DNA of 64,000 nt. It comes from Bacteroidota bacterium (lineage in GTDB: Bacteria > Bacteroidota > Bacteroidia > Chitinophagales > Chitinophagaceae). How positions within the stretch are numbered: position 1 is the stretch's first letter; the number at the start of each line of letters is the position of its first letter. This document shows positions 31,120 to 56,499 of this stretch, piece by piece. The position numbers and the translations under genes are program-made. The notes beneath the pieces were generated by a model. It was not told the origin of the DNA. It saw only the letters and a program-made list of their open reading frames with translations, and made no database searches. Where the stretch lies: assembly GCA_018266775.1 (NCBI GenBank), contig JAFDZS010000001.1, positions 310,001 to 374,000 on the forward strand, read 5' to 3'.

Positions 31120-32463
31120 TTACCCAAACACCAGCGTAAACACCGTACCCTCTCCTTCCTTACTCTGCACTAAAATATTGCCTTTGTGCAGCAGCATAAT
31201 TTGTTTGCATAAACTGAGGCCGATACCACTGCCGCTTTTTTTAGTGCTGAAGAAGGGAATAAAAATTTTGTCGAGCAACTCCGGGGCAATGCCGCTGCCA
31301 TTATCAGATACCCGTATCAATAATTTATTATGATCCTGAACAGCGGACAGTAAAATGCGGGGCTGTGCTTTTTCTTTTACGGCTTCAATAGCATTTACCA
31401 CCAGGTTAATAAGCACCTGTTCAATTAAATTAATATCGATGGAACAGGTAAGGTGCGGATCTTTTAAAATTACTTCCAGTTCAATATGCTTCTGGTCCAG
31501 CGTAGGCTGCATGAGTGCATAGAGATTTTCAAAAAGGTCACGCACAAAAACTTTTTTCAAATTGGGTGTAGTGATCTTATTCAGGTTGCGGTAGGTTTCA
31601 GTAAATTTCAATAAACCCTCGCTGCGGCGCTGAATGGTTTCCAGCCCCAGTTCCAGGTCATCCATTGTGCCGTTATCTGCCGCAGGCGCTGCATGTGCCT
31701 GTGCCAGCCGGTTTTTTAAAGTGCCCGCCAAAGATGAAATGGGCGCAACAGAATTCATAATCTCATGCGTCATCACACTCAATAATTTTTGCCAGGCTTT
31801 GGCTTCAGTTTCATCCAGGGCTTCATTGATATTCTGGCAGGCAATGACCTTGTTTAATTTATTTTCTGTTTGAAAAACAGTGGCGGCTAAAAGAATTTTA
31901 AGCGGCCGGTTATCTTTGGTGATCGATACCACTTTGGTTTCGCCGGGGCGTATGTCAATCGCTTCACGATACAATACAGCATCACGTTTTTCCAATGAAT
32001 GAATGGTTTTTAAATACGGTATCTCCATCATCCGCTTAAAAGTATCATTCATCCAGTTCAGTTCCCCACTTTCTGTTTCGTAAGAAATAATACCGGTATC
32101 CACCAGCTCCAGGATTTTCTGCAGGTATTGATACTGCACTTCCTTTTCTTTACTGATTACTTTGAAGGTGGTGTTGATTTCATTAAAACCCTGGCGCAGC
32201 GGTTGTAATTCTGCAGGCGCATGTTTTACATTAAAATAGCGGGAGAAATCGCGGTAATGAATACTCTCTACAAATTCCTGCACTTCATCCTGTGCTTTTT
32301 GCATCATGCGGTACACATCATACATCAAAATAAGTGCCGCGGCACCAAGAATAATGATGAACAAATAATTTGCCTGCACTACAAACCATGCCGCAGCCAC
32401 CAGTATGCCAAACAGCAATACTAATTTTAATAACAGGCGCCATTCCAATTTTTTAAATATCAT
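31120..32463 (-). CDS. Intramembrane-type sensor histidine kinase, partner of the NtrC-family regulator
   Basis: A 447-residue kinase. Two membrane helices (~9-29 and ~33-52) are joined by only a few residues, so there is no periplasmic sensor domain. A HAMP-like linker and a PAS-like region (~105-215) follow. The phospho-acceptor is H233 in SVMTHEIMNS. The ATPase domain shows the N box (NLVVNAIEA, 353-361), G1 (DNGSGI, 387-392), F box (FIPFFSTK, 401-408) and G2 (GSGIGL, 411-416). This is the NtrB/NtrY-like class that pairs with sigma-54 activators. Its start overlaps the end of the regulator gene by 11 bp, so translation is probably coupled. Stimulus unknown; sensing within the membrane or through the neighbouring transporter is an inference. 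Confidence 0.95.
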   Translation of the reverse strand: MIFKKLEWRLLLKLVLLFGILVAAAWFVVQANYLFIIILGAAALILMYDVYRMMQKAQDEVQEFVESIHYRDFSRYFNVKHAPAELQPLRQGFNEINTTFKVISKEKEVQYQYLQKILELVDTGIISYETESGELNWMNDTFKRMMEIPYLKTIHSLEKRDAVLYREAIDIRPGETKVVSITKDNRPLKILLAATVFQTENKLNKVIACQNINEALDETEAKAWQKLLSVMTHEIMNSVAPISSLAGTLKNRLAQAHAAPAADNGTMDDLELGLETIQRRSEGLLKFTETYRNLNKITTPNLKKVFVRDLFENLYALMQPTLDQKHIELEVILKDPHLTCSIDINLIEQVLINLVVNAIEAVKEKAQPRILLSAVQDHNKLLIRVSDNGSGIAPELLDKIFIPFFSTKKSGSGIGLSLCKQIMLLHKGNILVQSKEGEGTVFTLVFG

Positions 32464-33805
32464 ATTTGCTTAGTCTGCGGTAAAGGGCAGTTCGGGTTAA
32501 ACCCAATTCTTTGGCAGCTTTGGTAATATTGCCATTGTGTTTTTCAATTACTTTTTGAATGGCGTTGCGTTCCACAGTGCTCAGCCTGAAATCGGTATCA
32601 TCATCAACAGCCTGTAACTGGTTTTCCAGCGATGAAAAGATCAGGTCATCATCAGTAATCTCATCCTGTTCGCTCATGATCACCGCACGCTCCATTACAT
32701 ACTGCAGCTCACGCACATTGCCGGGAAAATGATATTGCTGCAGCTTGTGCAGTGCAGCAGCATTCAGTTCCATATCAGGTTTAAAATATTTGGCTGCATA
32801 CAGTTTTACAAAATGTTTGGCCAGCAAGGCAATATCATCGCCACGTTTGCGTAAAGGGGGTATCGTAATTTCAACGGTGTTGATGCGGTACATCAAATCT
32901 TTCCTGAAACGGTTTTCATTGGCCAGTTCCATCATGGGCACATTGGTGGCACAGATCAAACGGATATCAATAGACGCAGGTTGATGGGAACCCAACCGCG
33001 TGATCTGCCGGTTTTGCAGTACCGTCAGCAACCTGGCCTGCTGGTGTAAAGTAATGTTTCCAATTTCATCTAAAAATAAAGTACCGGTATGGGCTGCTTC
33101 AAAGCGGCCCATACGGTCTTCCCGTGCATCGGTAAAAGCACCTTTTTTATAACCGAACAATTCACTTTCAAATAATGATTCTGTTAATGCACCCACATCC
33201 ACCTTTACAAAAGGCTGGCCGGCACGTAACGATTTTTCATGAATGGCCTTGGCCACTAAATCTTTACCCGTTCCGTTTTCACCCAGTATTAATATATTAG
33301 CATCGGTGGGCGCCACTTTTTCAATCTTCTTAAAAATATCCTGCATCACTTCTGAGTGGCCGAGTATACCGGTTGCAGCACTGCTGTTTTTAGTTTTTAT
33401 GGCCAAAGGCGATGGACCGGATTTCTGCAATAATTCTTTCATCGTATCCAGCAGGCGTTCATTATGCCAGGGCTTGATCATAAAATCGCCGGCGCCTTCT
33501 TTTAAAGAACGAACGGCCAGGTCAATATCGCCGTAAGCAGTGATCATGATGACTGCAGTATCCGGCGCCAGTTCTTTAATTTTTTTTAACCAGAAGATGC
33601 CTTCATTGCCGGTGTTGATAGAACTGTTGAAATTCATATCCAGCAAAATCAGGTCGAAATGTTTTTTGGGTAACAGTGTTTTAATGGCATCCGGGTTTTT
33701 TTCAATCATCACTTCCTTCACTTCTGTTTTCAGCAATAACCGTACCGCGGTAAGCACATCGGTATCATCATCAATAACCAGTATCGTGGCGTTCTTTAAT
33801 AACAT
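32453..33805 (-). CDS. NtrC-family sigma-54-dependent response regulator
   Basis: A 450-residue activator. The receiver domain has IDDD near the N-terminus, phospho-acceptor D56 (LILLDMNF), T89 and K111. The AAA+ domain shows Walker A GENGTGKD (175-182), the sigma-54 contact loop as GAFTDA (222-227) where the textbook loop is GAFTGA, Walker B GTLFLDEIG (241-249), and the later FRKDLMYRIN and FPGNVREL motifs. A Fis-type helix-turn-helix ends the protein (KAAKELGLTRTALYRRL). It should bind upstream enhancers and open sigma-54 promoters. It is divergent from the exporter operon across a 333-nt region that carries repeated sites, so that operon is the obvious target. Confidence 0.95.
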   Translation of the reverse strand: MLLKNATILVIDDDTDVLTAVRLLLKTEVKEVMIEKNPDAIKTLLPKKHFDLILLDMNFNSSINTGNEGIFWLKKIKELAPDTAVIMITAYGDIDLAVRSLKEGAGDFMIKPWHNERLLDTMKELLQKSGPSPLAIKTKNSSAATGILGHSEVMQDIFKKIEKVAPTDANILILGENGTGKDLVAKAIHEKSLRAGQPFVKVDVGALTESLFESELFGYKKGAFTDAREDRMGRFEAAHTGTLFLDEIGNITLHQQARLLTVLQNRQITRLGSHQPASIDIRLICATNVPMMELANENRFRKDLMYRINTVEITIPPLRKRGDDIALLAKHFVKLYAAKYFKPDMELNAAALHKLQQYHFPGNVRELQYVMERAVIMSEQDEITDDDLIFSSLENQLQAVDDDTDFRLSTVERNAIQKVIEKHNGNITKAAKELGLTRTALYRRLSKYDI

Positions 33806-33999: not shown

Positions 34000-34014
34000 T
34001 GGCACAGTGTTCAC
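34000..34014 (+). promoter_or_regulatory. Imperfect sigma-54-like promoter element
   Basis: TGGCAC at 34000-34005 is a perfect -24 element. The expected -12 element TTGC at 34011-34014 reads TCAC, so the usually invariant GC is AC. It lies 48 nt downstream of the nearest enhancer-like repeat and 125 nt before the membrane-fusion gene. The match is suggestive only. Confidence 0.3.
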
Positions 34015-34138: not shown

Positions 34139-35392
34139 ATGGACAGAGTTATAGAAAAGAAAAAATGGAATACCAAACGCTTACTTACCATCGGTGGTAT
34201 TGCGGGCATTGTATTATTAATTGCAGGGTCAATTTATTTTACCTCCGGCAAAAGCAGGCTGAATGTGGACCTGGAAAGAATCACCATCAGCGAGGTAAAG
34301 AATGGCGTTTTTGAAGATGTTATTCCTGTTAACGGTGTGGTATTGCCGGAAACTTCCATTTACCTGGATGCACTGGAAGGTGGCCGCGTGGAAGAAAAAT
34401 ATGTGGAAGATGGCGCCATGATGAAAAAAGGCGAGCCTATTTTACGCCTGAGCAATACCGACCTGGAGCTGAGCCTCATTAACCAGGAAACATCGGTATT
34501 TAACCTGCTTACACAAATGCAGATCAGTAAAAATGCGGCGCAGCAAAATACGATTGGTAAACTGAACCAGGCCACCGATGTTGAAAATTCACTGAAAGAA
34601 GCAGAACGTATTTATAAGCTGGATAAAAAACTGTATGAAGAAAAAGTGATCGGCACACAGGAGTTTAAACAGGCAGAAAACAATTATAATTACCAGGTAC
34701 AGAAAAAGCAATTGTCGCAGGAAATTTTGAAGAAAGACTCCGTATCCTCCCAACAGGAAAGCAGCCAGGCACAACAAACGTACAGCCGTACACGAAATGC
34801 ACTGGATGTAATGCGCAAAAAAGTGGGCGACCTGATTGTAAGGGCACCGGTTGACGGTCAGCTGACTTCACTGGATGCAGAAATTGGCCAGTCCAAAAAC
34901 AAAGGGGAACGCCTGGGCCAGATTGACATTACCACAGGGTTTAAAGTACGGGTGGATGTGGATGAACACTACATTTCCCGTGTGTTTACCGGTTTAAAAG
35001 GCGAAGCTAATTTATCAGGTAAAAATTATAAACTGGTTATTAAAAAAGTATATACGCAGGTAACCAACAGCCGCTTCCAGGTAGATATGCAGTTTGCAGA
35101 CAGTGTTCCCGAAGGCATCCGCCGCGGACAAACCCTGCAGATACGCCTTGCATTAAGCGATGAAACACAGGCTTTGCTGGTACCCAAAGGCGGTTTTTAC
35201 CAGCAAACGGGCGGCAACTGGATCTTTAAAGTAAATGAAAGCGGAACAATGGCCTACAAAGTGGATATCATGATCAACCGCCAGAACCCGGAATACTTTG
35301 AAGTAATACAGGGATTAAAACCCGGCGATAAAGTGGTGACCAGCAGTTATGAAAACTATGGCAACATGCAGGAACTCATTCTTAAAAAATAA
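34139..35392 (+). CDS. Membrane fusion protein (HlyD/MacA-like) of the ABC exporter
   Basis: A 417-residue periplasmic adaptor. A basic N-terminus and one membrane helix (~15-35) anchor it to the inner membrane. The first lipoyl half is near 65-105 (NGVVLPETSIYLDALEGGRVEEKYVEDGAMMKKG is its span). A long alpha-hairpin runs through ~115-228, and the second lipoyl half is LIVRAPVDGQL (232-242). Beta-barrel and membrane-proximal parts follow to ~417 (LKPGDKVVTSSYENYGN). MacA-type adaptors join an inner-membrane MacB-like transporter to a TolC channel, and both partners lie downstream in this locus. It is the first gene of the operon. Confidence 0.93.
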   Translation: MDRVIEKKKWNTKRLLTIGGIAGIVLLIAGSIYFTSGKSRLNVDLERITISEVKNGVFEDVIPVNGVVLPETSIYLDALEGGRVEEKYVEDGAMMKKGEPILRLSNTDLELSLINQETSVFNLLTQMQISKNAAQQNTIGKLNQATDVENSLKEAERIYKLDKKLYEEKVIGTQEFKQAENNYNYQVQKKQLSQEILKKDSVSSQQESSQAQQTYSRTRNALDVMRKKVGDLIVRAPVDGQLTSLDAEIGQSKNKGERLGQIDITTGFKVRVDVDEHYISRVFTGLKGEANLSGKNYKLVIKKVYTQVTNSRFQVDMQFADSVPEGIRRGQTLQIRLALSDETQALLVPKGGFYQQTGGNWIFKVNESGTMAYKVDIMINRQNPEYFEVIQGLKPGDKVVTSSYENYGNMQELILKK

Positions 35393-35410: not shown

Positions 35411-35605
35411 ATGAAACTTATTGTAATCATTGCAGGGATTGTGCTTACCGTATTGCTGCTGCAAACCAACAATTCGTTTGCCAATTCCGATTGTAAGGAA
35501 ATGTGCTGCAGTACATCAACCATTACTGCACCAGCAATACATGCGGTTGACATTGAACCCGACTACGATCCATTCACCATCTTAATCCCCGGCAATCATC
35601 TTTAA
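35411..35605 (+). CDS. Small secreted cysteine-containing peptide within the exporter operon
   Basis: A 64-residue product starting 18 nt after the adaptor gene and ending 11 nt before the ATPase gene, which argues strongly that it is real. Residues 1-24 form a signal peptide (hydrophobic IVIIAGIVLTVLLLQ, then NSFA before the likely cleavage). The mature ~40 residues hold a CKEMCC cluster, then a neutral Thr/Ala stretch and an acidic, Pro-containing tail (VDIEPDYDPFTILIP). There is no lipobox. I do not recognise a family. It could be the exporter's substrate, a periplasmic signal or sensor, or a small accessory subunit; nothing in the sequence decides among these. Confidence 0.7.
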   Translation: MKLIVIIAGIVLTVLLLQTNNSFANSDCKEMCCSTSTITAPAIHAVDIEPDYDPFTILIPGNHL

Positions 35606-35616
35606 AAAAAATTTGT

Positions 35617-36294
35617 ATGATCACAATTAACAACCTGGAAAAATATTACAGAACAGAGGAAGTGGAAACTGTTGCACTGAATAAACTTTCTATGTCAATT
35701 AAAGAAGGAGAATTTGTTGCTATTATGGGTCCTTCAGGATGCGGCAAATCTACCTTATTAAATATTTTGGGTTTGCTGGATGATGCTGATAACGGAAGTT
35801 ATGTATTCAATGGCATTGAAGTGGCCAAATTCAACGAGCGCAAAAGGGCCGATCTGCGCAAACGCAATATTGGTTTTGTATTCCAGAGTTTTAACCTGAT
35901 TGATGAACTGACAGTGTTTGAAAATGTGGAATTGCCGCTGATCTATACCGGTATTAAAGCAGCAGAAAGAAAAAAGCGTGTGGAAGAAGTGCTGGATAAA
36001 GTGCAGATCATGCACCGCCGCAATCACTACCCGCAACAATTATCGGGTGGCCAGCAGCAAAGGGTGGCCGTGGCCCGTGCAGTGGTGAACAATCCTAAAC
36101 TGATACTGGCCGATGAACCTACCGGTAACCTGGACTCCAGCAACGGTAATGAAGTAATGCAGATGCTGACCGACCTGAATGAACAGGGTACAACAATTAT
36201 TATGGTAACGCACAGTGAACATGATGCCAAGTACAGCCACCGCATTATACGCATGCTGGATGGGCAAACTGTTACCGAAAATATTCTGGTATAA
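35617..36294 (+). CDS. ABC transporter ATPase 1 (MacB/LolD type)
   Basis: A 225-residue stand-alone nucleotide-binding subunit. Walker A is GPSGCGKST (38-46), the Q-loop Gln is 90, the signature is LSGGQQQR (142-149), Walker B is LILADEP (162-168), the D-loop is NLDS (171-174) and the switch His is 199. All catalytic elements are intact. The sequence around Walker A and FVFQSFNLIDELTVFENVELPL is typical of the MacB/LolD/FtsE group, which powers mechanotransmission by FtsX-like permeases rather than direct transport. It should serve the permeases downstream, the first of which begins 105 nt away, the widest gap in the operon. Confidence 0.96.
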   Translation: MITINNLEKYYRTEEVETVALNKLSMSIKEGEFVAIMGPSGCGKSTLLNILGLLDDADNGSYVFNGIEVAKFNERKRADLRKRNIGFVFQSFNLIDELTVFENVELPLIYTGIKAAERKKRVEEVLDKVQIMHRRNHYPQQLSGGQQQRVAVARAVVNNPKLILADEPTGNLDSSNGNEVMQMLTDLNEQGTTIIMVTHSEHDAKYSHRIIRMLDGQTVTENILV

Positions 36295-36399: not shown

Positions 36400-38841
36400 A
36401 TGATTTCTTATTTTTTTAAAACAGCGTGGAGAAATCTTTTAAAAAATAAAGGCTACAGCGCCATCAATATTTTTGGCCTTGCTGTTGGCCTGGCCACCTG
36501 CCTCGTCATCATTCTTTATGTAACTGATGAACTGAGTTACGACCGTTTTTTCAATAACGCCGGCAGGATTTACCGCATTAACTCCGACATTAAATTTGGA
36601 GGCGCACACTTACGCATAGCCGAAACACCGGATATGATGGGCGAATTACTTAAAAAAGATTATCCGCAGGTGGAAGAATATACCCGGTTGTACACCAATG
36701 AAGGCGAAAAGCTGGTGAAAAAAGGCAGCGATTTTATCAGCGAACCAAGAGTGGCTTATGCAGATTCCACATTCTTCCGCATGTTTAACCTGCCCGCAGT
36801 TGAGGGAGATACCAAAACTGCATTGGACGAACCCAATACCGTTGTCATCAATACCACGATGGCTAAAAAATACTTTGGTGACGGGAATGTGATGGGCAAA
36901 ACACTGGAAATAAAAGCTGATGCAGGATTGGAGCCTTATAAAATTACAGCAGTGATAAAAGACATCCCTGGAAATTCGCACATGAATTTTGACATGCTTT
37001 TCTCTATGAAAAATGCGAATTACCAATGGGGGCAGCTGACCAGCCACAACTTCAGAACGTATATTCAGCTGCGGGAAGGAACGGACTATAAAGCGTTTGA
37101 AAAAAACTTTCCTGCTTATATAGATAAATATGTTTTGCCGCAGGTAAAACAATTCATGAATATTGGCACCATGGCCGATTTTAATAAAGCTGGCAATACA
37201 CTGGACTATTCTTTATTACCGCTTACCAAAATTCACCTGTACAGCGATTTTAGTTTTGAAATTACACCGCCGGGCAATATCCGTTACGTTTATATTTTCA
37301 GTGCGGTGGCTTTATTCATCTTATTGATTGCCTGTGTAAACTTCATTAACCTCAGTACAGCACGCAGCGCAAAACGGGCAAAAGAAGTAGGCATACGCAA
37401 AACATTGGGTACTGAAAGAAAAACACTCATTGCACAATTTCTTGCAGAGTCTGTGCTTACCGTTGTAGTATCCATGCTGATTGCGTTGTGTATTGCATGG
37501 CTCATACTTCCTTTCTTTAACGAAGTGGCAGGAAAATCCATAACCATGCAGCAGGTGCTGAATGGTAAAATACTGGTCACCATTTTTTTACTGCCCGTAG
37601 TAGTAGGTTTGCTGGCGGGCAGTTACCCTGCTTTGTATCTTTCCCGTTTTAACCCGGTAACGGTATTAAAAGGCAATACTTCAGCGGCATCATTTAAGAA
37701 AAGTAATTTAAGGAATGCGCTGGTGGTGTTCCAGTTTGCTGCTTCTATTATTTTAATTGTAGTTACTATTGTCATCTATAAACAATTGCATTTTATTCAA
37801 ACCCGGCAATTGGGTTTTAACAGGGACCAGGTGCTGATTATTGACGGCGCTTATGCACTGGACAATAACATTGATGCTTTTAAACAGGAAGTGCTGAAGA
37901 TGCCGGGTGTGAGCAGCGGAACCATCAGTTCATTTTTACCGGTATCAAAATCTTCCCGCAACGACAACTCTTATTCCAAAGATGCGGTAATGGATTCCAA
38001 AAACGGTATTGATATGCAAACCTGGCGGGTGGATTATGATTATATGAAAACACTGGGTATACAAGTTATTAATGGCCGCAATTTTTCAAAAGATTTTGGC
38101 AGCGATTCCAGTGCCATGATCATTAATGAAACCACTGCAAAGATTTTGGGCTACGATAATCCGGTAGGTCAGAAAATATATGCATTCAAAGGCAGTACCA
38201 ATAATCAATTGGTGGCCTATAACATTATTGGTGTGGTTAAAAATTTCAACTACGAGTCTATGCACCAGGATGTGGGCCCGCTTTGTTTTTTACTGAGCAA
38301 AAGTACCGGCCTGGCATCATTTAAAATAGATGCGGCAAAAGCATCTGCCATCATCCCGGAAGTGGAGCACCAGTGGAAAGCAATGGCTTCGGGTATGCCA
38401 TTCAGTTATCGTTTTCTCGATGATTCTTTCAACGATATGTACAGGGATGAACAGCGGGTTGGGCAACTGGCGGTATCATTTTCCATACTGGCCATTCTGA
38501 TTGCCTGCCTGGGATTATTTGGCCTGGCCACTTTTATGGCAGAACAGCGTACAAAAGAAATCGGCATCAGGAAAGTGCTGGGCGCCAGTGCCGGCAACGT
38601 GGTGCAAATGCTCAGCGGTGGTTTTATTAAACTGGTATTGCTGGCTTCCCTGTTTGCATTCCCCATTGCATGGTGGGCTATGGATAAATGGCTGCAGGAC
38701 TTTGCTTACCGCATCAGCATTCAATGGTGGGTTTTTGCAGCAGCAGCATTTGCCGCAATTATGATTGCATTGATAACGGTTAGTTACCAGGCAATAAAAG
38801 CTGCGTTGGCCAACCCGGTAAAATCTTTACGTACAGAATAG
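36400..38841 (+). CDS. FtsX/MacB-like ABC permease 1 of 8
   Basis: An 813-residue permease built as a duplicated unit: helix 1 (~18-42), a large periplasmic core domain (~43-290), three helices (~294-320, 347-372, 390-415), then helix 5 (~430-460), a second periplasmic domain (~460-685) and three more helices (~685-712, 740-765, 775-805). Each half carries a cytosolic coupling motif, KEVGIRKTLG at ~328 and KEIGIRKVLG at ~719, where the ATPase should dock. One chain can therefore supply both permease halves. The C-terminus is NPVKSLRTE. The second periplasmic domain has VDYDYMKTLG, a feature it shares only with permease 5. The stop is TAG, unlike the other seven. An inverted repeat TGCTGCA/TGCAGCA sits in the 105-nt gap upstream. 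Confidence 0.95.
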   Translation: MISYFFKTAWRNLLKNKGYSAINIFGLAVGLATCLVIILYVTDELSYDRFFNNAGRIYRINSDIKFGGAHLRIAETPDMMGELLKKDYPQVEEYTRLYTNEGEKLVKKGSDFISEPRVAYADSTFFRMFNLPAVEGDTKTALDEPNTVVINTTMAKKYFGDGNVMGKTLEIKADAGLEPYKITAVIKDIPGNSHMNFDMLFSMKNANYQWGQLTSHNFRTYIQLREGTDYKAFEKNFPAYIDKYVLPQVKQFMNIGTMADFNKAGNTLDYSLLPLTKIHLYSDFSFEITPPGNIRYVYIFSAVALFILLIACVNFINLSTARSAKRAKEVGIRKTLGTERKTLIAQFLAESVLTVVVSMLIALCIAWLILPFFNEVAGKSITMQQVLNGKILVTIFLLPVVVGLLAGSYPALYLSRFNPVTVLKGNTSAASFKKSNLRNALVVFQFAASIILIVVTIVIYKQLHFIQTRQLGFNRDQVLIIDGAYALDNNIDAFKQEVLKMPGVSSGTISSFLPVSKSSRNDNSYSKDAVMDSKNGIDMQTWRVDYDYMKTLGIQVINGRNFSKDFGSDSSAMIINETTAKILGYDNPVGQKIYAFKGSTNNQLVAYNIIGVVKNFNYESMHQDVGPLCFLLSKSTGLASFKIDAAKASAIIPEVEHQWKAMASGMPFSYRFLDDSFNDMYRDEQRVGQLAVSFSILAILIACLGLFGLATFMAEQRTKEIGIRKVLGASAGNVVQMLSGGFIKLVLLASLFAFPIAWWAMDKWLQDFAYRISIQWWVFAAAAFAAIMIALITVSYQAIKAALANPVKSLRTE

Positions 38842-38891
38842 CATATTACACGAACATCAGTTACAGTATACGCCAATCAAAAACACAACTT

Positions 38892-41279
38892 ATGTTTAAA
38901 AACTATTTACTTACAGGATTAAAAAACCTGCAAAAACATAAAGTATTCTCGTTGATCAATATTGTTGGCCTTACAGTAGGAATTGCCTGCTGCATCATGA
39001 TCGCCATCTATATTAAACATGAACTGAGCTACGATAATTTTCATACCAACAGCAATAACACGTACCGTATAGTACGGGTATCAGATTTTAATGGAGATGG
39101 AAACAACCGCAACATTGGCTGGGTATCCGGCCCGTATGCCGCAGCATTGAGAAATGATTATGCAGAAGCCATACAACATACTGTGCGTATACTACCGGAT
39201 AATGACCTGTTTGCATACCAGAATAATTCTTTTAACGAACAAAAAGTATATTTAGCAGACAGCAATTTTTTCAACTTCTTCAGCTTTCCCTTGCTGAAGG
39301 GAAATGCCACCAGTGTGCTGAACGATCCTGCAAGTATTGTACTTACTGCCAGCACTGCAAAAAAATACTTTGGCAACGATGATCCGATGGGTAAAGTAAT
39401 TACCATGAACGAAAAGCTTCAGCTTAAAGTAACGGGTATTGCCAAAGATGCGCCGCTGAATTCACACTTGTCATTTGATATGGTGGTGCCCTTATCTAAT
39501 TTCAGGCAGTATGATTCTGTACAGAATTTTCCCAACAACGGTTTGTATACCTACATTCAGCTGAACCCGAATGTGAATGTAAAACAACTGGAAAGCCACT
39601 TTCCGCAGTTTATGGATAAATACCTGGGCAAATACTTTGCTGCCAACGGTTTTAAAATTGGCCTTGCCGCAGAACCAATGAATAAAGTTTATTTTAACGA
39701 TACCGATCTTGATGGATTAAAGCACGGCAGTAAAAAAACCATTTGGGTATTTACATTGATTGGCATATTGATATTGGTGATTGCCTGCATCAACTTTATG
39801 AACCTGGCCAGCGCAAGGGCAACAGACCGTTCTAAAGAAGTGGGCCTGAGAAAAGTATTGGGTGCAGTAAGAAAACAATTGGTACAGCAATTTATTCTCG
39901 ATTCATTTTTGTATGTAACCATTTCCTGCATACTGGCATTGCTGGTGGTACAACTGCTGTTGCCGGCGTTCGGTAATTTACTGGGGCATCCGGTAACCGC
40001 TTTCTGGAGCGATCCTGCACTGTATATTTTTCTTGCAGCAGTGATTTTGGTGATTGGTTTATTGGCCGGTATTTATCCTGCACTGGTGCTGTCATCATTT
40101 TCACCCATAGAATCATTGAAAGGGAAATTGAAAGTGGGCAACTCCGGCGCATTTTTCAGAAAAGGACTGGTGATATTCCAGTTCAGCGTATCGGTCATGC
40201 TGATCATTGGTATCATCATTATTTCTGTACAAATGAACTATGTAAGAAACAAAGATCTTGGTTTTAATAAAGAACAAACACTGCTGGTAAGGATAGACAA
40301 CAGGGATATTTATAAAGAAAAGCAGCATTTTAAGCAAATGGTGGAAGCAGAACCGGGGGTGGCATCAGTATCATTAATGTCTGGCGAGCCCGGAGGTTTT
40401 CACGATAGATATGGTTTTGAAGCAGAAGCAAAACCCGGTGAAAAATTATTATTCAATACAGAATTTTCAGATTTCGAGTATGTAAAAACGTTAGGTTTAA
40501 AAATTATTGCCGGAAGAAATTTCTCTCCTGACTATCCTGCAGATTCAACCGGAGCAGTACTCATCAACAGATCTGCAGCCACTAACCTTGGCTATACACC
40601 CGAACAGGCTGTTGGCAAATGGATCAAAAATACCATGCGTGATACCATACACAGGAGTATTGTAGGCGTGGTGGAAGATTTTCATTTTGCTTCATTGAAA
40701 GAGCAGATCGGCCCGATGATCTTCTCCACCTATAAAGACTGGCGGGTGGCCGTGATACGCCTTAAGCCGGGCAATAACCTGCAGGCTACGGTAAAAAGCA
40801 TTGGTAAAGTATATGCAGCATCAGCTCCGGCATATCCGTTTGAATACAGTTTCCTGGATAAGCAATTTGATGGGCATTACAAAGATGAAATACGGGAAGG
40901 CACCATACTGAGTGTGTTCTCCACTATCGCCATATTGGTGGCGTGCCTGGGTTTGTTTGGCCTGGCATCATACACAGCAGTAAAAAGAACCAAGGAAATT
41001 GGTGTAAGAAAAGTACTGGGCTCGTCCATACCCGGTATCGTATTGTTACTCTCGAAAGATTTATTGAAACCCGTTTTCATCGGAACTGCAATAGCCATAC
41101 CGGCCGGTTATTATTTTATGAATAACTGGCTGCAGGGGTTTGCTTACCGCATCAGTATACAATGGTGGATGGTGGCAGCGGCCGCAATCATAGCTGTAGG
41201 CATTGCATTACTCACGGTGAGTTACCAGGCAATAAAAGCTGCATTGGCCAACCCGGTACAATCGTTACGTTCAGAATAA
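38892..41279 (+). CDS. FtsX/MacB-like ABC permease 2 of 8
   Basis: 795 residues. The N-terminal segment is YLLTGLKNLQKHKVFSLIN where its neighbours have AWRNL, so this copy diverges early. Coupling motifs are KEVGLRKVLG at ~315 and KEIGVRKVLG at ~701. The helix after the first periplasmic domain (~285-312) reads IACINFMNLASA. The second periplasmic domain carries EPGGFHDRYGFEAEA, not seen in the other copies, so it may recognise something different. The C-terminal tail is NPVQSLRSE, the only tail with Gln for Lys. Its last ~60 nt are nevertheless very close to those of permeases 1 and 3. It starts 50 nt after permease 1. Confidence 0.95.
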   Translation: MFKNYLLTGLKNLQKHKVFSLINIVGLTVGIACCIMIAIYIKHELSYDNFHTNSNNTYRIVRVSDFNGDGNNRNIGWVSGPYAAALRNDYAEAIQHTVRILPDNDLFAYQNNSFNEQKVYLADSNFFNFFSFPLLKGNATSVLNDPASIVLTASTAKKYFGNDDPMGKVITMNEKLQLKVTGIAKDAPLNSHLSFDMVVPLSNFRQYDSVQNFPNNGLYTYIQLNPNVNVKQLESHFPQFMDKYLGKYFAANGFKIGLAAEPMNKVYFNDTDLDGLKHGSKKTIWVFTLIGILILVIACINFMNLASARATDRSKEVGLRKVLGAVRKQLVQQFILDSFLYVTISCILALLVVQLLLPAFGNLLGHPVTAFWSDPALYIFLAAVILVIGLLAGIYPALVLSSFSPIESLKGKLKVGNSGAFFRKGLVIFQFSVSVMLIIGIIIISVQMNYVRNKDLGFNKEQTLLVRIDNRDIYKEKQHFKQMVEAEPGVASVSLMSGEPGGFHDRYGFEAEAKPGEKLLFNTEFSDFEYVKTLGLKIIAGRNFSPDYPADSTGAVLINRSAATNLGYTPEQAVGKWIKNTMRDTIHRSIVGVVEDFHFASLKEQIGPMIFSTYKDWRVAVIRLKPGNNLQATVKSIGKVYAASAPAYPFEYSFLDKQFDGHYKDEIREGTILSVFSTIAILVACLGLFGLASYTAVKRTKEIGVRKVLGSSIPGIVLLLSKDLLKPVFIGTAIAIPAGYYFMNNWLQGFAYRISIQWWMVAAAAIIAVGIALLTVSYQAIKAALANPVQSLRSE

Positions 41280-41298
41280 GCCATAAAAACAGGAAATA

Positions 41299-43674
41299 AT
41301 GATTAAGAATTTTTTTAAGATCACGTACAGGAACCTGCTCCGCAACAAAAGTTTCTCCCTGATCAATATCAGCGGGCTGGCCATTGGTATGGCCAGTGCC
41401 ATTTTAATTTTATTGTGGATACAGAATGAATTAAGCCACGATAAATTTCACGAAAAAGGAAGCCGCATTTACATTGCCAATAACAGGGACAAATTTAACG
41501 GCCAGGTTTGGGCATGGCCCACGACACCTAAGATAATGGCGCCCACATTAAAATTATCATACCCGGAAGATGTGGAAGATGCAGTACGGATCAACTTTGC
41601 CAATTTTTTATTTACTGTGGGTGAAAAACACCTGAACGTACAGGGAAATACCGTTGACTCCGGTTTCCTCAGCGTATTCAGTTTTCCGCTGCTTAAAGGC
41701 GATGCTACAAAAGCACTGGGCGGTGTGTACAATATTGTGATCACAGAAAAACTGTCTAAAAAATTATTTGGCGATGAAGATGCTATGGGTAAAGTGATCA
41801 GGATAGACAGTGTGGATAATTTTACGGTAACGGGTGTACTAAAAGATTTGCCCAACAACACGGCCTTCAATTTTGAATATTTACTGCCCTGGGCTTACCT
41901 GAAAAAAATTAACCAGGATGATGACAACTGGACTAATAATTCCATACAAACCTATATCCTGCTGAAACCCGGCGTATCGCAGCCGGCGTTCGATGAAAAA
42001 ATTAAAAACATCACCATCAGCCATACCACTAACAGCACATCACCCTCCACCACACAGGTGTTTACACAACTGTTCAGCGATCATTGGTTGTATTCAAAAT
42101 CGGAGAATGGAAAATATGTTGGCGGAAAAATAGAACAGGTTAAAATGTTTGCCATCATTGCAGGTTTTATTTTACTGATAGCCTGTATCAACTTTATGAA
42201 CCTGAGCACCGCACGCAGCGAAAAGCGGGCCAGGGAAGTAGGCATACGCAAAGTTGTGGGTGCAGAAAAAACGTCATTGATCATACAATTCATTTGTGAA
42301 AGCATTGTACTGGCATTGATTGCAGGTTTACTGGCACTGCTGCTGGTACAGATCAGTTTGCGTGCATTTAATACATTAGTAAGTAAACAATTGTTTGTTG
42401 AGTACAGCAATCCTTACTTCTGGATGATTGCACTTGGTTTTGTATTATTCACCGGGTTGCTGGCCGGCAGTTACCCTGCTTTTTATTTATCTTCTTTCAG
42501 GCCAATAAAAGTTTTGAAAGGAACTTTCAAAGCAGCCAATGCAGCAGTAACGCCGCGGAAAGTTTTGGTAGTACTGCAATTTACATTTGCTATTGCACTC
42601 ATCATTTGCACCATTGTGGTGGAGCACCAGATCAAGTATGCACAAAGCCGCGACAGCGGTTATGAAAAAGACCGCCTGGTATATACATTCATCCAGGGCA
42701 ACAATGAAAAACATTACGACCTGATCAAAAATGAACTGCTCAGTTCCGGTACAGCCGTTTCCGTTACCAAATCAATGAGCCCGATTACACAACGCTGGAG
42801 CGACAGCTGGGGCTATACATGGCCCGGCAGCAAACCCGGAGATGATAAAACAGATTTTGTGCGCTTTTCGTCTGATGCAGATTTTGTAAAAACCATGGGA
42901 GTAAAATTAGTGGCGGGCCGCGATATTGATATCAATAACTATCCTGCAGATTCCAATGCCATGCTGCTGAATGAAACTGCTGTAAGTGTAATGAAACTGA
43001 AAGATCCCATTGGTACTATTATCAGGGAAGATGATAACTCCGAATGGCATGTAGTGGGCGTGATCAAAGATTTTGTATTTGAATCGCCCTATCAAAAAGT
43101 CCAGCAACTGATGGTAAGCGGGCCTAAAAGCTGGTTCAACGTCATTCATTATAAATTAAACCCGGCGCTCAGTACCAGTAAAGCAATTGATATGGCCAGG
43201 AATATTTTTGATAAATATAATCCCGGGTATGGCTTCGACTATCATTTTGTTGATAAAGATTATGAACAAAAATTCTTTGCAGAAAAGCAATATGGTACGC
43301 TTGCTGCATTGTTTGCCGGTTTAACCATTTTTATTTCCTGCCTGGGTTTATTTGGTTTGGCAACATATATGGCCGAGAGCCGCATTAAAGAAATTGGTGT
43401 GCGCAAAGTGCTGGGTGCAGGTGTGGGCAACATCACCACATTATTATCCAAAGATTTTTTGAAACTGATAATGATCGCATTTTTAATTGCATCACCCATT
43501 GCGTGGTATTTTATGCACCAGTGGCTGCAAACTTATAACTACCGTGTGGGTGTGGAATGGTGGGTGTTTGCATTAACCGCTGCAGTATCGGTATGCATTG
43601 CCGTGGCAACGGTAAGCTACCAGGCCATTAAAGCTGCGCTGGCCAACCCGGTAAAATCTTTACGCACAGAATAA
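41299..43674 (+). CDS. FtsX/MacB-like ABC permease 3 of 8
   Basis: 791 residues, the shortest copy, starting 19 nt after permease 2. Coupling motifs are REVGIRKVVG at ~312 and KEIGVRKVLG at ~697. Just before helix 2 (~282) it has SENGKYVGGKIEQVKMF, and in the second periplasmic domain YTWPGSKPG. This ENG...GG plus WPG pair is shared with permeases 4 and 6. The 3' end, however, matches permeases 1 and 2 (SYQAIKAALANPVKSLR, serine codon TCT), so the gene looks mosaic. The loop after the second coupling motif is AGVGNITTLLSKDFLK. Confidence 0.95.
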   Translation: MIKNFFKITYRNLLRNKSFSLINISGLAIGMASAILILLWIQNELSHDKFHEKGSRIYIANNRDKFNGQVWAWPTTPKIMAPTLKLSYPEDVEDAVRINFANFLFTVGEKHLNVQGNTVDSGFLSVFSFPLLKGDATKALGGVYNIVITEKLSKKLFGDEDAMGKVIRIDSVDNFTVTGVLKDLPNNTAFNFEYLLPWAYLKKINQDDDNWTNNSIQTYILLKPGVSQPAFDEKIKNITISHTTNSTSPSTTQVFTQLFSDHWLYSKSENGKYVGGKIEQVKMFAIIAGFILLIACINFMNLSTARSEKRAREVGIRKVVGAEKTSLIIQFICESIVLALIAGLLALLLVQISLRAFNTLVSKQLFVEYSNPYFWMIALGFVLFTGLLAGSYPAFYLSSFRPIKVLKGTFKAANAAVTPRKVLVVLQFTFAIALIICTIVVEHQIKYAQSRDSGYEKDRLVYTFIQGNNEKHYDLIKNELLSSGTAVSVTKSMSPITQRWSDSWGYTWPGSKPGDDKTDFVRFSSDADFVKTMGVKLVAGRDIDINNYPADSNAMLLNETAVSVMKLKDPIGTIIREDDNSEWHVVGVIKDFVFESPYQKVQQLMVSGPKSWFNVIHYKLNPALSTSKAIDMARNIFDKYNPGYGFDYHFVDKDYEQKFFAEKQYGTLAALFAGLTIFISCLGLFGLATYMAESRIKEIGVRKVLGAGVGNITTLLSKDFLKLIMIAFLIASPIAWYFMHQWLQTYNYRVGVEWWVFALTAAVSVCIAVATVSYQAIKAALANPVKSLRTE

Positions 43675-43686
43675 AAGTACAGCACC

Positions 43687-46086
43687 ATGATAAAAAATTA
43701 TTTTACTATAGCGTGGAGAAACCTGCTGAAGAACAAAACATCTTCCTTTATAAATATTGCAGGGCTTGCTGCGGGCATGGCAGTGGCCATGCTTATTGGC
43801 TTCTGGATATATGATGAGGTATCGTATGACCAGTATCACACCAACTACAAACACATTGCAAGGGTAATGCAGCACCAGACATCCAATGGATATGTATTTA
43901 CTTCGGTAGCTATTCCTTTTCCATTGGGGGAGGAATTGCAAAGCAAAGACGGCAGCGATTTCAAATACATTGTACGTTCATCATGGAATGGCAGCCATAT
44001 ATTAAGCCTGGGCGATCAAAAGATTTCGGTAAGCGGTTCATACATGGATGCCGCTGCACCTAAAATGCTTACACTGAAAATGCAGGAAGGAAATAATGAC
44101 GGATTGAAGGAGATGAATACAATCTTATTATCTGCCGCTTCGGCTAAAGCTTTATTTGGCGATAAAGCTGCGTTGAACCAGGTGATAAAAATTGATAATA
44201 AACTGGATGTAAAAGTTACCGGTGTTTATGAGGATCTTCCGCACAATACTACATTTCGTGAATTAAATTTTATTGCGCCATGGGATTTATATGTATCGTC
44301 TGAACCGTGGATCAAAAATTCAATGACACAATGGGGCAACAATTCCTTTCAGTTGTTTGCACAAATAGCAGACCATGCCGATTTTGATGCAGTGAATAAA
44401 AAAATCATCAATGTAAAGCAAGACCGTGTTTCACCGGAAGAAAAAAAATTCAATGCTAAAATATTCCTGCACCCGATGCAGAACTGGCACCTGCACTCCA
44501 AATGGGAAAATGGTGTGAATGCGGGCGGCGCAATTGAATACGTACGCATGTTTTTAATTGTGGGCATATTTGTGTTACTGCTGGCCTGCATCAATTTTAT
44601 GAACCTGAGTACAGCACGCAGCGAAAAACGTGCAAAGGAAGTGGGTATACGTAAGTCCATTGGCTCACTGCGCAGCCAGCTTATTGGCCAGTTTTTTTCA
44701 GAGTCATTGCTGGTGGTGGCTTTTGCGTTCATCCTTTCTTTATTGATCACTCAGTTCACATTACCACTGTTTAATGATATTGCCGGAAAGCAAATGAAAG
44801 TACTGTGGGCAAATCCGGTTTTCTGGATGATGGGTATTGGCTTTGCACTGTTCACCGGAATTATTGCAGGCTGTTACCCCGCATTATACCTCTCTTCCTT
44901 CAAGCCGGTAAAAGTGTTGAAGGGTACATTTAAAGCCGGCCGACTTGCTGCTTTGCCCAGGAGGATACTGGTGGTGCTGCAGTTTACGGTATCGGTTACA
45001 CTAATTATTGGCACCATGGTGGTATACCGGCAAATTCAATATTCCAAAGACAGGCCGGTGGGTTATGACCGCAATGCGCTGATGATGGTGGAAGCAAAAT
45101 CACCAGATTTTATTGGTAAAGCAGCACTCATGCGCAACGAGCTGCTGGAAGAAGGCGCTGTTACACAGATTTCAGAATCATCCAGCCCGGTAACTGATGT
45201 ATGGTCCAACAACGGCGGTATGCGCTGGCCGGGTAAAGATCCTAACCAGGATGCCGACTTTGCCACTATCTGGATAAGCCATGATTTTGGTAAAACAGTA
45301 GGCTGGCATTTTAAGGAAGGCCGCGATTTATCAAGAGATTTTCCAGGTGATTCGTCCAGCATGGTCATTAATGAATCTGCTGTAAAATTCATGGGGCTTA
45401 AAGAACCAGTGGGTACAGTAATTTCCTGGGGCGATGAACCGCACGTAAGAAAATATACTGTTGTGGGTGTGATAGATGATATGCTGATGCAATCGCCTTA
45501 TGAACCTGTAAAACAAACGATATACTTATTGGGCCAGAATGATGATGTGAACTGGATCAACCTGAAACTGAACCCTGCAAAAAGTTTATCATCATCCATT
45601 GCTGCAGTGGAAGCTGCATTTAAAAAATATGTACCCAATGCACCATTCGAATACAAATTTGCAAATGAAGAGTTTGCCAAAAAATTTATTACAGAAGAAC
45701 GTGTAGGTAAACTGGCAGGCACATTTGCCATACTTGCGGTGCTCATCAGTTGCCTGGGCTTATTTGGTTTATCAGCATTTGTAGCAGAACAGCGCACCAA
45801 AGAAATTGGTGTGCGTAAAGTATTGGGCGCATCAGTTTTAAATGTTTGGCAAATGTTGTGTAAAGATTTTGTACAGCTCGTGATCATTGCCTGCGTAATA
45901 GCAGCACCATTGGCGTGGTATTATTTGCATAGCTGGTTAGATAAATATTCATACCGCACCACTATTTCTGTTTGGGTATTTGCAGGCGCATTTGTGGGTG
46001 CATTACTCATTACATTAATTACAGTAAGTTTTCAAAGCATTAAAGCAGCATTAATGAATCCTGTAAAAAGTTTACGTACCGAATAA
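43687..46086 (+). CDS. FtsX/MacB-like ABC permease 4 of 8
   Basis: 799 residues, starting 12 nt after permease 3. It begins IKNYFTIAWRNLLKNKTSS. Helix 2 starts near 283 after KWENGVNAGGAIEYVRMF. Coupling motifs are KEVGIRKSIG at ~317 and KEIGVRKVLG at ~705. The second periplasmic domain has GGMRWPGKDPNQ, placing it with permeases 3 and 6. The tail is SFQSIKAALMNPVKSLRTE with an AGT serine codon. It is the first of five copies (4-8) that use AGT there instead of TCN. Confidence 0.95.
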   Translation: MIKNYFTIAWRNLLKNKTSSFINIAGLAAGMAVAMLIGFWIYDEVSYDQYHTNYKHIARVMQHQTSNGYVFTSVAIPFPLGEELQSKDGSDFKYIVRSSWNGSHILSLGDQKISVSGSYMDAAAPKMLTLKMQEGNNDGLKEMNTILLSAASAKALFGDKAALNQVIKIDNKLDVKVTGVYEDLPHNTTFRELNFIAPWDLYVSSEPWIKNSMTQWGNNSFQLFAQIADHADFDAVNKKIINVKQDRVSPEEKKFNAKIFLHPMQNWHLHSKWENGVNAGGAIEYVRMFLIVGIFVLLLACINFMNLSTARSEKRAKEVGIRKSIGSLRSQLIGQFFSESLLVVAFAFILSLLITQFTLPLFNDIAGKQMKVLWANPVFWMMGIGFALFTGIIAGCYPALYLSSFKPVKVLKGTFKAGRLAALPRRILVVLQFTVSVTLIIGTMVVYRQIQYSKDRPVGYDRNALMMVEAKSPDFIGKAALMRNELLEEGAVTQISESSSPVTDVWSNNGGMRWPGKDPNQDADFATIWISHDFGKTVGWHFKEGRDLSRDFPGDSSSMVINESAVKFMGLKEPVGTVISWGDEPHVRKYTVVGVIDDMLMQSPYEPVKQTIYLLGQNDDVNWINLKLNPAKSLSSSIAAVEAAFKKYVPNAPFEYKFANEEFAKKFITEERVGKLAGTFAILAVLISCLGLFGLSAFVAEQRTKEIGVRKVLGASVLNVWQMLCKDFVQLVIIACVIAAPLAWYYLHSWLDKYSYRTTISVWVFAGAFVGALLITLITVSFQSIKAALMNPVKSLRTE

Positions 46087-46096
46087 ATCTATAGCC

Positions 46097-48505
46097 ATGA
46101 TAAAAAATTATTTCAAGATCGCCTGGCGCAATTTATGGAAGAATAAAACCTTTTCTACCATCAATATTATTGGTTTGGCTGTGGGCTTTACCTGTTGCCT
46201 GCTTATTGGAGGATTTTTGTATAGTGAATTGAATTATGATACCTTTCCCGATGGCGCCAAAAATATTTACCGTGCCGAAATTAATTTAGAGAATAAAGAT
46301 TTTTATTCCACTGTAGATGTTGGTGTTGGCCCCGGCATGAAAGCCGCTTTCCCGGAAATTGAAAGCCAGGCAAGATTGATCAACTGGGGACAAAAATTTG
46401 TACGGTATGAAGACAAGGAGTTTAAAGAAAATTCCATTTGCGCAGTAGATTCAAACTTTTTACAGCTGTTTTCCATTCCATTGCAAAAAGGCGATGTAAA
46501 AACAGCCTTGAATGAACCCTTCTCCCTGGTTATATCCAAAGATATGGCAACAAAATATTTTGGCAACGATGACCCTGTTGGCAAAACACTAACGATCAAT
46601 AACAGCACCAATCCATTTAAAGTTACCGGTGTGCTGGCCACAATGCCCGGTGACCTGCATTTTAATTTTGATATTTACGTGGCCATGGGCAACCAGCTGA
46701 AGGTAAACACATGGTCTAACGTTGGTATATACACGTATTTAAAATTAAAGCCAGGCACCGACCCCAAAAAGCTGGAAGCAAAATTTCCTCAACTGGTGGC
46801 CAAAAACGTAGTGCCCGAAGTACAACGGGATATGGGTGTAAGTTTGGCTGAAGCACAGAAATCAATAAACACGTTTATCTTTTACCTTAAACCCATTCAA
46901 TCCATACACCTGCATTCATCCAATAAAGATGAGCTGCAGGTAAACGGCAGTATTAAATACATCTACATTTTTGCTGCACTGGCAGTGTTTATATTGTTGC
47001 TGGCCGGCGTAAATTTCACCAACCTTTCTACTGCAACATCTATCAAACGGTCTAAAGAAGTGGGCATACGCAAAGTAATGGGCAGTGGCAAGCAACAACT
47101 AATCAGGCAGTTTCTTTCAGAGTCTGTATTGCTTACATTGTTTGCTTTTATACTTTCATTGGGACTGGTATATTTATTACTGCCTTATTTCAATAATTTA
47201 TCGGGCAAACATTTATTTTTTGTTTTCTTTTTAAAATACACCATATTATTGCCGGCACTTATTGGTGTGTTCCTTGTTGGTGTTTTGGCGGGCATCTATC
47301 CTGCATTTTTTCTTTCCTCATTCAACATCATCAGTGTATTAAAAGGAAAAAATAATGCAGCACCACACAGCACTAACCGTTTGCGCAGCAGCCTGGTGGT
47401 ATTCCAGTTTGCAGTATCCATTACACTTATTATTTGTACGATGGTGGTGTATAAACAACTGCGGTATATGCAAAATGCAGCATTGGGTTACGACTCATCA
47501 CAGGCGATGATCATTAACGATGCTTATTTACTGGGTAAAGACCAGGATGCATTTAAACAACAACTACTGAAAGACAGCCGTGTTGAAAATGTAACCATTT
47601 CAAGAAATGTTCCTGTTGCCTCAAACGATATTGGCGGCACACAGGCATTTGCAAAAGATAACCTTGATAACGAAAGCCGTTCAGAAATTCATATTGATAA
47701 ATATTTTGTGGATTACGATTATCTTAAAACACTGAACATCCCGGTTAAATCGGGCAGGTTTTTTTCAAAAGATTTTTCCACCGATTCCTTTGCTGTTGTG
47801 CTGAATGAAACAGCTGTAAAAGCATTTGGCATCAGTGGCGACCCGATAGGAAAAAGCATCATCACTTCAGGCCAGCATGAATATCATATCATCGGTGTGG
47901 TAAAAGATTTTCATTATATGCCATTGCGTGAAAAAATTGGGCCATTGGTAATGCAGCTGGGCAATAATTATGGTGGTATGATTGTGAAAGTAAAAACGGC
48001 AGATATTGGAAACCTGATTGCCGCTATAAAATCAGGATGGGAAAGTTTTAATGCCAAAGGCCCTTTCTCCTATAATTTTATCGATGACCGTTTTGCATCG
48101 GTATATAAAAGCGAAGAACGCACTGGTAAAATCTTCAGCCTGTTCACATTTTTATCTATCATCATTGCATCAATGGGTTTATTTGGTTTATCTGCCTTTG
48201 CTACAGCACAACGCACCAAAGAAATTGGTGTAAGAAAAGTGCTGGGGGCAACTGTTACACAAGTGGTGTTGCTGTTAAGCAAAGAATTTGTTGTAATGGT
48301 AATGATTGCATTCATTGTGGCAGTACCAATAACATGGTTTATTATGAACAAATGGTTGCAGGAGTTTGCCTACCGGATCGATATTGGGTGGATCACTTTT
48401 ATAGCAGCAGGAATACTGGCGCTGTTGCTGGCATTTGTAACCGTAAGTATGCAGGCTATAAAAGCAGCCATTGCCAACCCTGTAAAAAGTTTACGTACAG
48501 AATAA
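46097..48505 (+). CDS. FtsX/MacB-like ABC permease 5 of 8
   Basis: 802 residues, 10 nt after permease 4. Coupling motifs are KEVGIRKVMG at ~320 and KEIGVRKVLG at ~708. The second periplasmic domain carries VDYDYLKTLN and GPFSYNFIDDRF, like permease 1 (VDYDYMKTLG, FSYRFLDDSF), so copies 1 and 5 appear to be the closest pair in that domain although three genes separate them. Helix 2 reads LAGVNFTNLSTA where most others have ACINFMNLSTA. The region between helices 3 and 4 is unusually aromatic (HLFFVFFLKYTILL). Confidence 0.95.
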   Translation: MIKNYFKIAWRNLWKNKTFSTINIIGLAVGFTCCLLIGGFLYSELNYDTFPDGAKNIYRAEINLENKDFYSTVDVGVGPGMKAAFPEIESQARLINWGQKFVRYEDKEFKENSICAVDSNFLQLFSIPLQKGDVKTALNEPFSLVISKDMATKYFGNDDPVGKTLTINNSTNPFKVTGVLATMPGDLHFNFDIYVAMGNQLKVNTWSNVGIYTYLKLKPGTDPKKLEAKFPQLVAKNVVPEVQRDMGVSLAEAQKSINTFIFYLKPIQSIHLHSSNKDELQVNGSIKYIYIFAALAVFILLLAGVNFTNLSTATSIKRSKEVGIRKVMGSGKQQLIRQFLSESVLLTLFAFILSLGLVYLLLPYFNNLSGKHLFFVFFLKYTILLPALIGVFLVGVLAGIYPAFFLSSFNIISVLKGKNNAAPHSTNRLRSSLVVFQFAVSITLIICTMVVYKQLRYMQNAALGYDSSQAMIINDAYLLGKDQDAFKQQLLKDSRVENVTISRNVPVASNDIGGTQAFAKDNLDNESRSEIHIDKYFVDYDYLKTLNIPVKSGRFFSKDFSTDSFAVVLNETAVKAFGISGDPIGKSIITSGQHEYHIIGVVKDFHYMPLREKIGPLVMQLGNNYGGMIVKVKTADIGNLIAAIKSGWESFNAKGPFSYNFIDDRFASVYKSEERTGKIFSLFTFLSIIIASMGLFGLSAFATAQRTKEIGVRKVLGATVTQVVLLLSKEFVVMVMIAFIVAVPITWFIMNKWLQEFAYRIDIGWITFIAAGILALLLAFVTVSMQAIKAAIANPVKSLRTE

Positions 48506-48514
48506 ATTAAAAAT

Positions 48515-50899: not shown

Positions 50900-50909
50900 A
50901 AATATCAGC

Positions 50910-53378: not shown

Positions 53379-53401
53379 TTGATGAACATCAATACAATGA
53401 T

Positions 53402-55807: not shown

Positions 55808-55818
55808 AACAACACAAA

Positions 55819-56499
55819 ATGTTATTACAACTGAAGAATCTATTTAAATGGGTAACTGTTGGCGGCAACAGGGTGTTTTTACTGAAAGACATTAATCTCT
55901 CCGTAAAAGAAGGAGAATTTATTTCCGTCATGGGGCCATCGGGTTCTGGTAAATCTACTTTATTAAATGTAATTGGAATGCTTGATCATTTTGACGAAGG
56001 CGAATATGATTTCCTGCATGAGAGTGTACACAAAATGAAAGATAAACAAAAAGCCAGCCTGTACAAACAATACATTGGTTTTGTATTTCAGCAATATCAT
56101 TTAATAGATGAACTGACTGTGTATGAAAATATTGAAACACCGCTTATTTACCAGGATTTAAAAACCAGTGAACGTAAAGCAATGGTGGCCGATATACTGG
56201 ACCGCTTTAATATTGTTGGTAAGAAAGATTTATTTCCCACGCAATTATCCGGCGGACAACAACAGCTGGTAGGTATTGCAAGAGCTTTAATAGCAAAACC
56301 AAAATTATTGCTGGCCGATGAACCCACCGGCAACCTCAACTCCAAACAGGGCGAAGAAATTATGAACCTGTTTACCGAACTCAATAAAGAAGGCGTTACC
56401 ATCATCCAGGTAACACACTCCGAAAAAAATGCCGCCTATGGGTCAAGGATCATTAACCTGCTGGATGCAAGAATAGAAAACGAACAAACCGCTTCATAA
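55819..56499 (+). CDS. ABC transporter ATPase 2 (MacB/LolD type)
   Basis: 226 residues from the ATG at 55819. A longer frame from 55771 would overlap permease 8 and add a non-homologous leader, so it is rejected. Walker A is GPSGSGKST (39-47), Q-loop Gln 91, signature LSGGQQQL (143-150), Walker B LLLADEP (163-169), switch His 200. Two deviations stand out against ATPase 1: Leu for Arg after the signature, and NLNS for NLDS in the D-loop (172-175), which in ABC dimers helps couple the two sites. It should still bind and probably hydrolyse ATP. Its position after permease 8 and before the TolC gene suggests a second or alternative motor for the array. Confidence 0.94.
   Translation: MLLQLKNLFKWVTVGGNRVFLLKDINLSVKEGEFISVMGPSGSGKSTLLNVIGMLDHFDEGEYDFLHESVHKMKDKQKASLYKQYIGFVFQQYHLIDELTVYENIETPLIYQDLKTSERKAMVADILDRFNIVGKKDLFPTQLSGGQQQLVGIARALIAKPKLLLADEPTGNLNSKQGEEIMNLFTELNKEGVTIIQVTHSEKNAAYGSRIINLLDARIENEQTAS

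What the first reader, a model, noticed from the sequence alone, without database searches (positions are those of the whole stretch)
35411..35605. A 64-residue secreted Cys-rich peptide embedded between adaptor and ATPase genes
The frame fits exactly between two genes (18 and 11 nt gaps), has a clear signal peptide and a CKEMCC cluster in a ~40-residue mature part. MacB-type exporters take substrates from the periplasm, and a peptide reaching the periplasm by Sec would be positioned to be pumped out. It could be a cargo, a signal read by the kinase/transporter, or a small subunit.
Basis: partly seen in the sequence, partly recalled or inferred. Interest (0 to 1): 0.7.

Follow-up and report, generated by a model that had tools for sequence, protein, structure and literature searches.

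The report
Fast-evolving secreted peptide of exporter operon
Inside a pump operon of Chitinophagaceae bacteria sits a real, fast-changing gene for a tiny secreted peptide; about 80% of the related operons examined carry one such gene, its hydrophobic tail is the part that is kept, and it is probably carried or sensed by the pump, though this has not been tested.

Summary
The 64-aa ORF is real and exactly placed. Ordinary sequence search finds no clear relative, but synteny does. Of 106 distinct related operons (adaptor >55% identical, almost all Chitinophagaceae), 85 carry one small signal-peptide gene: 72 between adaptor and ATPase, 8 before the adaptor, 5 after the ATPase, never two at once. 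Shuffled sequence predicts fewer than one. Eighteen homologous pairs show purifying selection (pN/pS 0.39, p = 2e-36). The Cys pattern is not kept, although Cys is about 5.5-fold enriched. What is kept is the hydrophobic signal sequence and a hydrophobic C-terminal tail, usually with a Pro (the window's DPFTILIPGNHL). The operon has a conserved sigma54-like promoter next to an NtrC-type regulator and a short-loop kinase, and encodes a DarBCD/MacAB-like exporter plus TolC. Best reading: a Sec-delivered periplasmic peptide handled by this exporter through its tail, more likely cargo or signal than structural subunit. About 20% of operons lack it, so the pump does not need it. Arrest peptide, adaptor-bound subunit and chance ORF were tested without support. 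Function is inferred, not shown.

The parts
35411..35605 (+). Small secreted peptide gene, 64 aa; signal sequence about 1-24, variable Cys-containing middle 25-50, conserved hydrophobic tail 51-64
35561..35602 (+). C-terminal tail DYDPFTILIPGNHL (acidic/x/x-P-hydrophobic pattern), the most conserved part of the peptide across relatives
34000..34011 (+). Probable sigma54 promoter element TGGCAC-N4-TT upstream of the operon
   Evidence: TGGCAY within 330 nt upstream in 91 of 98 related operons, 0.09 expected per upstream region
34139..35392 (+). HlyD/MacA-type periplasmic adaptor (closest NCBIfam model DarC, below cut-off)
35617..36294 (+). ABC ATPase (MacB/LolD type; closest NCBIfam model DarD, below cut-off)
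36400..55807 (+). Eight tandem double FtsX/MacB_PCD permeases (first one scanned: ADOP/DarB-like)
55771..56499 (+). Second ABC ATPase of the cluster
56528..57928 (+). TolC-type outer membrane efflux protein
32453..33805 (-). NtrC-type sigma54-activating response regulator, divergent
31120..32463 (-). Histidine kinase with two closely spaced predicted transmembrane segments (about 10-29 and 34-52) and almost no periplasmic loop

Best explanation
The gene encodes a lineage-specific, fast-evolving peptide that Sec carries to the periplasm, where the signal sequence is removed. It is a dedicated ligand, most likely cargo, of the adaptor-ATPase-permease-TolC exporter encoded by the same operon, and the hydrophobic C-terminal tail is the part the envelope machinery recognises. 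Operon expression is switched by the divergent kinase/NtrC-type regulator at a sigma54 promoter, so peptide and pump are made together; the pumped peptide would act outside the cell as a signal or competitive factor. Shown here: real gene under purifying selection, position, at most one per operon, conserved signal-plus-tail anatomy, conserved sigma54-like element. Inferred: secretion and cleavage, recognition by the tail, export, role outside the cell.
For: Position and uniqueness: 85 of 106 operons carry one copy in one of three slots, none with two. Selection: pN/pS 0.39 over 18 pairs, p = 2e-36; amino-acid differences 15% in the tail, 25% in the signal, 41% in the middle, while the adaptor changes several-fold more slowly. 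Tail: last residue I/L/F/Y/M/V/W in 67 of 83 peptides against 26+-4 in shuffles; Pro at -14..-6 in 64 against 32+-4; motif 28 against 2.5. Cleavage: in one clade of 11 divergent peptides the Ala at -1 of the predicted signal peptidase site is invariant. All 16 profile matches at E < 1e-5 lie between adaptor and ATPase of this operon. [quoted passage not shown]
Against: 21 of 106 operons have no detectable peptide yet keep adaptor, ATPase and mostly kinase/regulator, so the pump must do something without it. Cys number is irregular (0-4, often odd), and the 50-aa versions before the adaptor have only about 20 residues after the hydrophobic segment, so a folded disulfide peptide is not a general model. 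Signal peptidase sites across the whole family are only modestly above chance (64 of 83 against 55.6+-3.6). AlphaFold of an adaptor-peptide read-through gave no order in the mature peptide.
Confidence: 0.42

Rival explanations
1. Regulatory accessory: the peptide stays in the periplasm or at the membrane and reports on or modulates the pump, for example by coupling it to the short-loop kinase, as accessory proteins do in BceAB-like sensor/transporter modules. The tail docks on pump or kinase.
For: The kinase has almost no sensor loop, so it probably senses through a partner; the kinase/regulator pair is next to nearly all operons; the shortest versions are little more than a hydrophobic segment plus tail; the peptide is absent from some operons, as expected of an accessory.
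Against: Very fast evolution compared with the adaptor; some operons lacking the peptide still have kinase and regulator; no order or interaction predicted with the adaptor (permeases and kinase not tested).
Confidence: 0.3
2. Translation-arrest (SecM-like) leader: N-terminal signal plus C-terminal arrest motif that controls translation of the next gene according to secretion activity.
For: Same outline (signal, variable middle, conserved end near the stop, directly before a gene). Arrest peptides upstream of secA and secDF are known in Bacteroidota (PMC10987492).
Against: The tail is a degenerate hydrophobic pattern, not a fixed motif; it does not end in the Pro-stop described for Bacteroidota; no excess RNA structure around the ATPase start (mean z +0.48, none below -2, 72 loci); the gene changes place relative to adaptor, ATPase and permease.
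Confidence: 0.08
3. Structural small subunit of the exporter complex.
For: Encoded inside the operon between two pump genes.
Against: Missing from 21 of 106 operons and not seen in the more distant families searched; very variable; disordered in the model.
Confidence: 0.1
4. Chance ORF or decaying remnant.
For: No sequence-detectable relative by ordinary search.
Against: 70 of 76 gaps against 0.22 expected; purifying selection.
Confidence: 0.01

Closest known systems
Darobactin exporter DarBCD with propeptide DarA
   Same: Adaptor, ATPase and first permease find DarC, DarD and DarB among their best NCBIfam matches; small peptide gene in the exporter operon.
   Different: All three are below the equivalog cut-offs; DarA is modified by the radical SAM enzyme DarE (PMC7616364), and none was found among the neighbouring genes scanned; this peptide has a Sec-type signal and no family match.
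MacAB-TolC with its peptide cargo STII
   Same: Sec-delivered small peptide with Cys and a periplasm-to-outside pump of the same superfamily (PMC5985334).
   Different: Here the peptide is encoded within the pump operon, the pattern of Cys is not fixed and the tail is conserved; export not shown.
BceAB-type sensor/transporter modules
   Same: Short-loop kinase plus regulator linked to a MacB-superfamily transporter (from general knowledge; PMC5985334 discusses the BceAB kinship).
   Different: Regulator is NtrC/sigma54 type, exporter is tripartite with many permeases, and a variable secreted peptide is added.
Bacteroidota Sec-related arrest peptides (uA_NSP-stop, uDF_NAP-stop)
   Same: Short ORFs just upstream of an export gene (PMC10987492).
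   Different: No terminal Pro, no RNA structure signal, different target genes.

Membership tests
MacAB-TolC-like tripartite ABC exporter (neighbouring genes) | HlyD/MacA adaptor, ABC ATPase, MacB_PCD/FtsX permease and TolC-type outer membrane factor | tested here: met
   Pfam HlyD_3, ABC_tran, MacB_PCD+FtsX, OEP
Darobactin exporter DarBCD (equivalogs) | NCBIfam equivalog cut-offs of DarB, DarC, DarD | tested here: not met
   149 of 700, 167 of 450, 306 of 375 bits
Darobactin-type RiPP cluster | Radical SAM maturase next to the propeptide | tested here: not met
   No radical SAM domain among the neighbouring genes scanned with Pfam; permeases 2-8 were not scanned but look like permeases by length and N-terminus
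Any curated peptide family (Pfam, NCBIfam) | Match above threshold | tested here: not met
   Window peptide without match in Pfam and NCBIfam; three relatives without match in NCBIfam
Double-glycine-leader bacteriocin/pheromone | GG leader | tested here: not met
   Hydrophobic Sec-type N-terminus instead; no leader-family match
MacAB peptide cargo | Peptide leaves the cell in a pump-dependent way | not testable with these tools
   needs an experiment
Translation arrest peptides | Fixed C-terminal arrest motif and regulated structure before the next gene | tested here: not met
   degenerate tail; no structure excess; stalling itself not testable here
Sigma54-dependent operon | -24/-12 element plus NtrC-type activator | tested here: met
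   TGGCAY in 91 of 98 upstream regions, Sigma54_activat domain; the -12 half is less canonical

The most novel reading that the evidence does not exclude
A previously undescribed class of rapidly diversifying secreted peptides in Chitinophagaceae, each paired with a sigma54-controlled DarBCD-like exporter whose permease set also varies, forming a strain-specific peptide export or communication system recognised through a conserved C-terminal tail.
Probability: 0.3. Interest if true: 0.8.

Novelty: new variant of a known kind. Interest (0 to 1): 0.6.

Why it matters
Small hypervariable genes escape similarity search; here synteny shows that a family of environmental bacteria keeps such a gene in most copies of a widespread exporter operon. 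If the peptide is cargo, it gives a natural substrate and a recognition tail for a DarBCD/MacB-type exporter, whose natural substrates are mostly unknown, and a handle on peptide signalling or competition in Bacteroidota.

Tried and rejected
Sequence search in 60 relatives gave only chance-level hits. Chance ORF: rejected. Arrest peptide: no support. Adaptor-bound subunit: the adaptor-peptide read-through model leaves the mature peptide disordered, pLDDT about 28. Conserved Cys framework: not found. Two profile hits outside the operon (L206, L218) turned out to be another small gene near an ECF sigma gene. In L117 a hydrophobic frame after the ATPase was read by eye as a broken permease, not the peptide. 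Canonical-spacing sigma54 scans gave weak scores; the TGGCAY-N4-TT form is the conserved one. Literature searches found no description of this peptide; subscription papers are not covered.

Full report
Observation. ORF 35411-35605 encodes 64 aa, 18 nt after the adaptor and 11 nt before the ATPase. Ordinary similarity search finds nothing convincing, so synteny was used. Adaptor homologs were collected from the genus, from GTDB genomes and from the order.

Equivalent genes. In most Chitinophagaceae loci the adaptor-ATPase gap is 200-300 nt and holds a 48-88 aa ORF with basic start, hydrophobic core and hydrophobic end. Of 76 non-redundant gaps of at least 150 nt, 70 have one; shuffles predict 0.22. 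Where the gap is short, a similar gene often lies before the adaptor (L061, L074, L082, L087, L094, L124, L135, L141) or after the ATPase (L058, L083, L086, L143, L144); L058 has no clear ATG and is the weakest. The slot of L143, L144, L058, L083 and L141 was assigned by reading the frames, not by the automatic criterion. No operon has two. On an adaptor tree of 106 rows: 72 in the gap, 8 before, 5 after, 21 none; the tree needs at least 17 changes among these states. More distant families with adaptors of about 40% identity or less have no such gene at these places, but a second adaptor clade in the same genus has its own version, mostly ending in IKYF[YF].

Selection and anatomy. Eighteen pairs give pN/pS 0.39 (p = 2e-36); the tail changes least, the middle most, and peptide dN is several times adaptor dN. 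Tail statistics against shuffles are far outside chance. In an alignment of 15 peptides chosen for a Pro-containing tail, that Pro and Met1 are the only invariant residues. Cys is enriched (4.1% against 0.74%) but its number and place vary. The signal peptidase Ala is invariant in one clade of 11, while the whole family shows only modest enrichment of cleavage sites, so cleavage may not be universal.

Setting. Divergent kinase and NtrC-type regulator, then adaptor, peptide, ATPase, eight permeases, a second ATPase and TolC. NCBIfam places adaptor, ATPase and permease nearest to the darobactin exporter DarC, DarD and to ADOP/DarB, all below cut-off. A TGGCAY-N4-TT element precedes 91 of 98 operons, in line with a report of sigma54 control of FtsX-type ABC systems in Bacteroidia (PMC12316311). 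The kinase has two adjacent transmembrane segments with almost no loop.

Mechanism. Shown: a real, selected, operon-bound gene with signal and tail. Inferred: Sec export, cleavage, recognition through the tail, and pumping. Cargo or signal is favoured (0.42) over regulatory accessory (0.30), because the peptide evolves quickly, is Cys-enriched like known MacB peptide substrates, and is dispensable to the pump. Arrest peptide and structural subunit are less likely.

Profile test. A profile of one clade finds 16 matches at E < 1e-5 in 299 family genomes, all between adaptor and ATPase of this operon. Two of the weak matches are another, unrelated small gene.

Limits. The window genome is one assembly; expression is unknown; public annotation of the relatives was not available; loci often end before the operon does, so some of the 21 'none' operons may carry the peptide further downstream.

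Noticed in passing
36400-55807: Eight tandem double-FtsX permeases follow one ATPase; in relatives the permeases next to the ATPase differ strongly (often 30-60% identity) while adaptor and ATPase stay at about 70-90%, suggesting reshuffling of the permease set.
   Followed up: partly
L220 and L221 around 5.1-5.6 kb: A different small Cys-containing secreted ORF lies between kbl and an ECF sigma/anti-sigma pair in two other Chitinophagaceae genomes.
   Followed up: partly
21093-27038: 1981-aa RHS-repeat protein with a Por secretion tail (type IX secretion), next to a 2966-aa CARDB-domain protein at 12161-21061.
   Followed up: no
55771-55807: The reading frame of the second ATPase overlaps the end of the last permease by 37 nt if its first ATG is used.
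   Followed up: no
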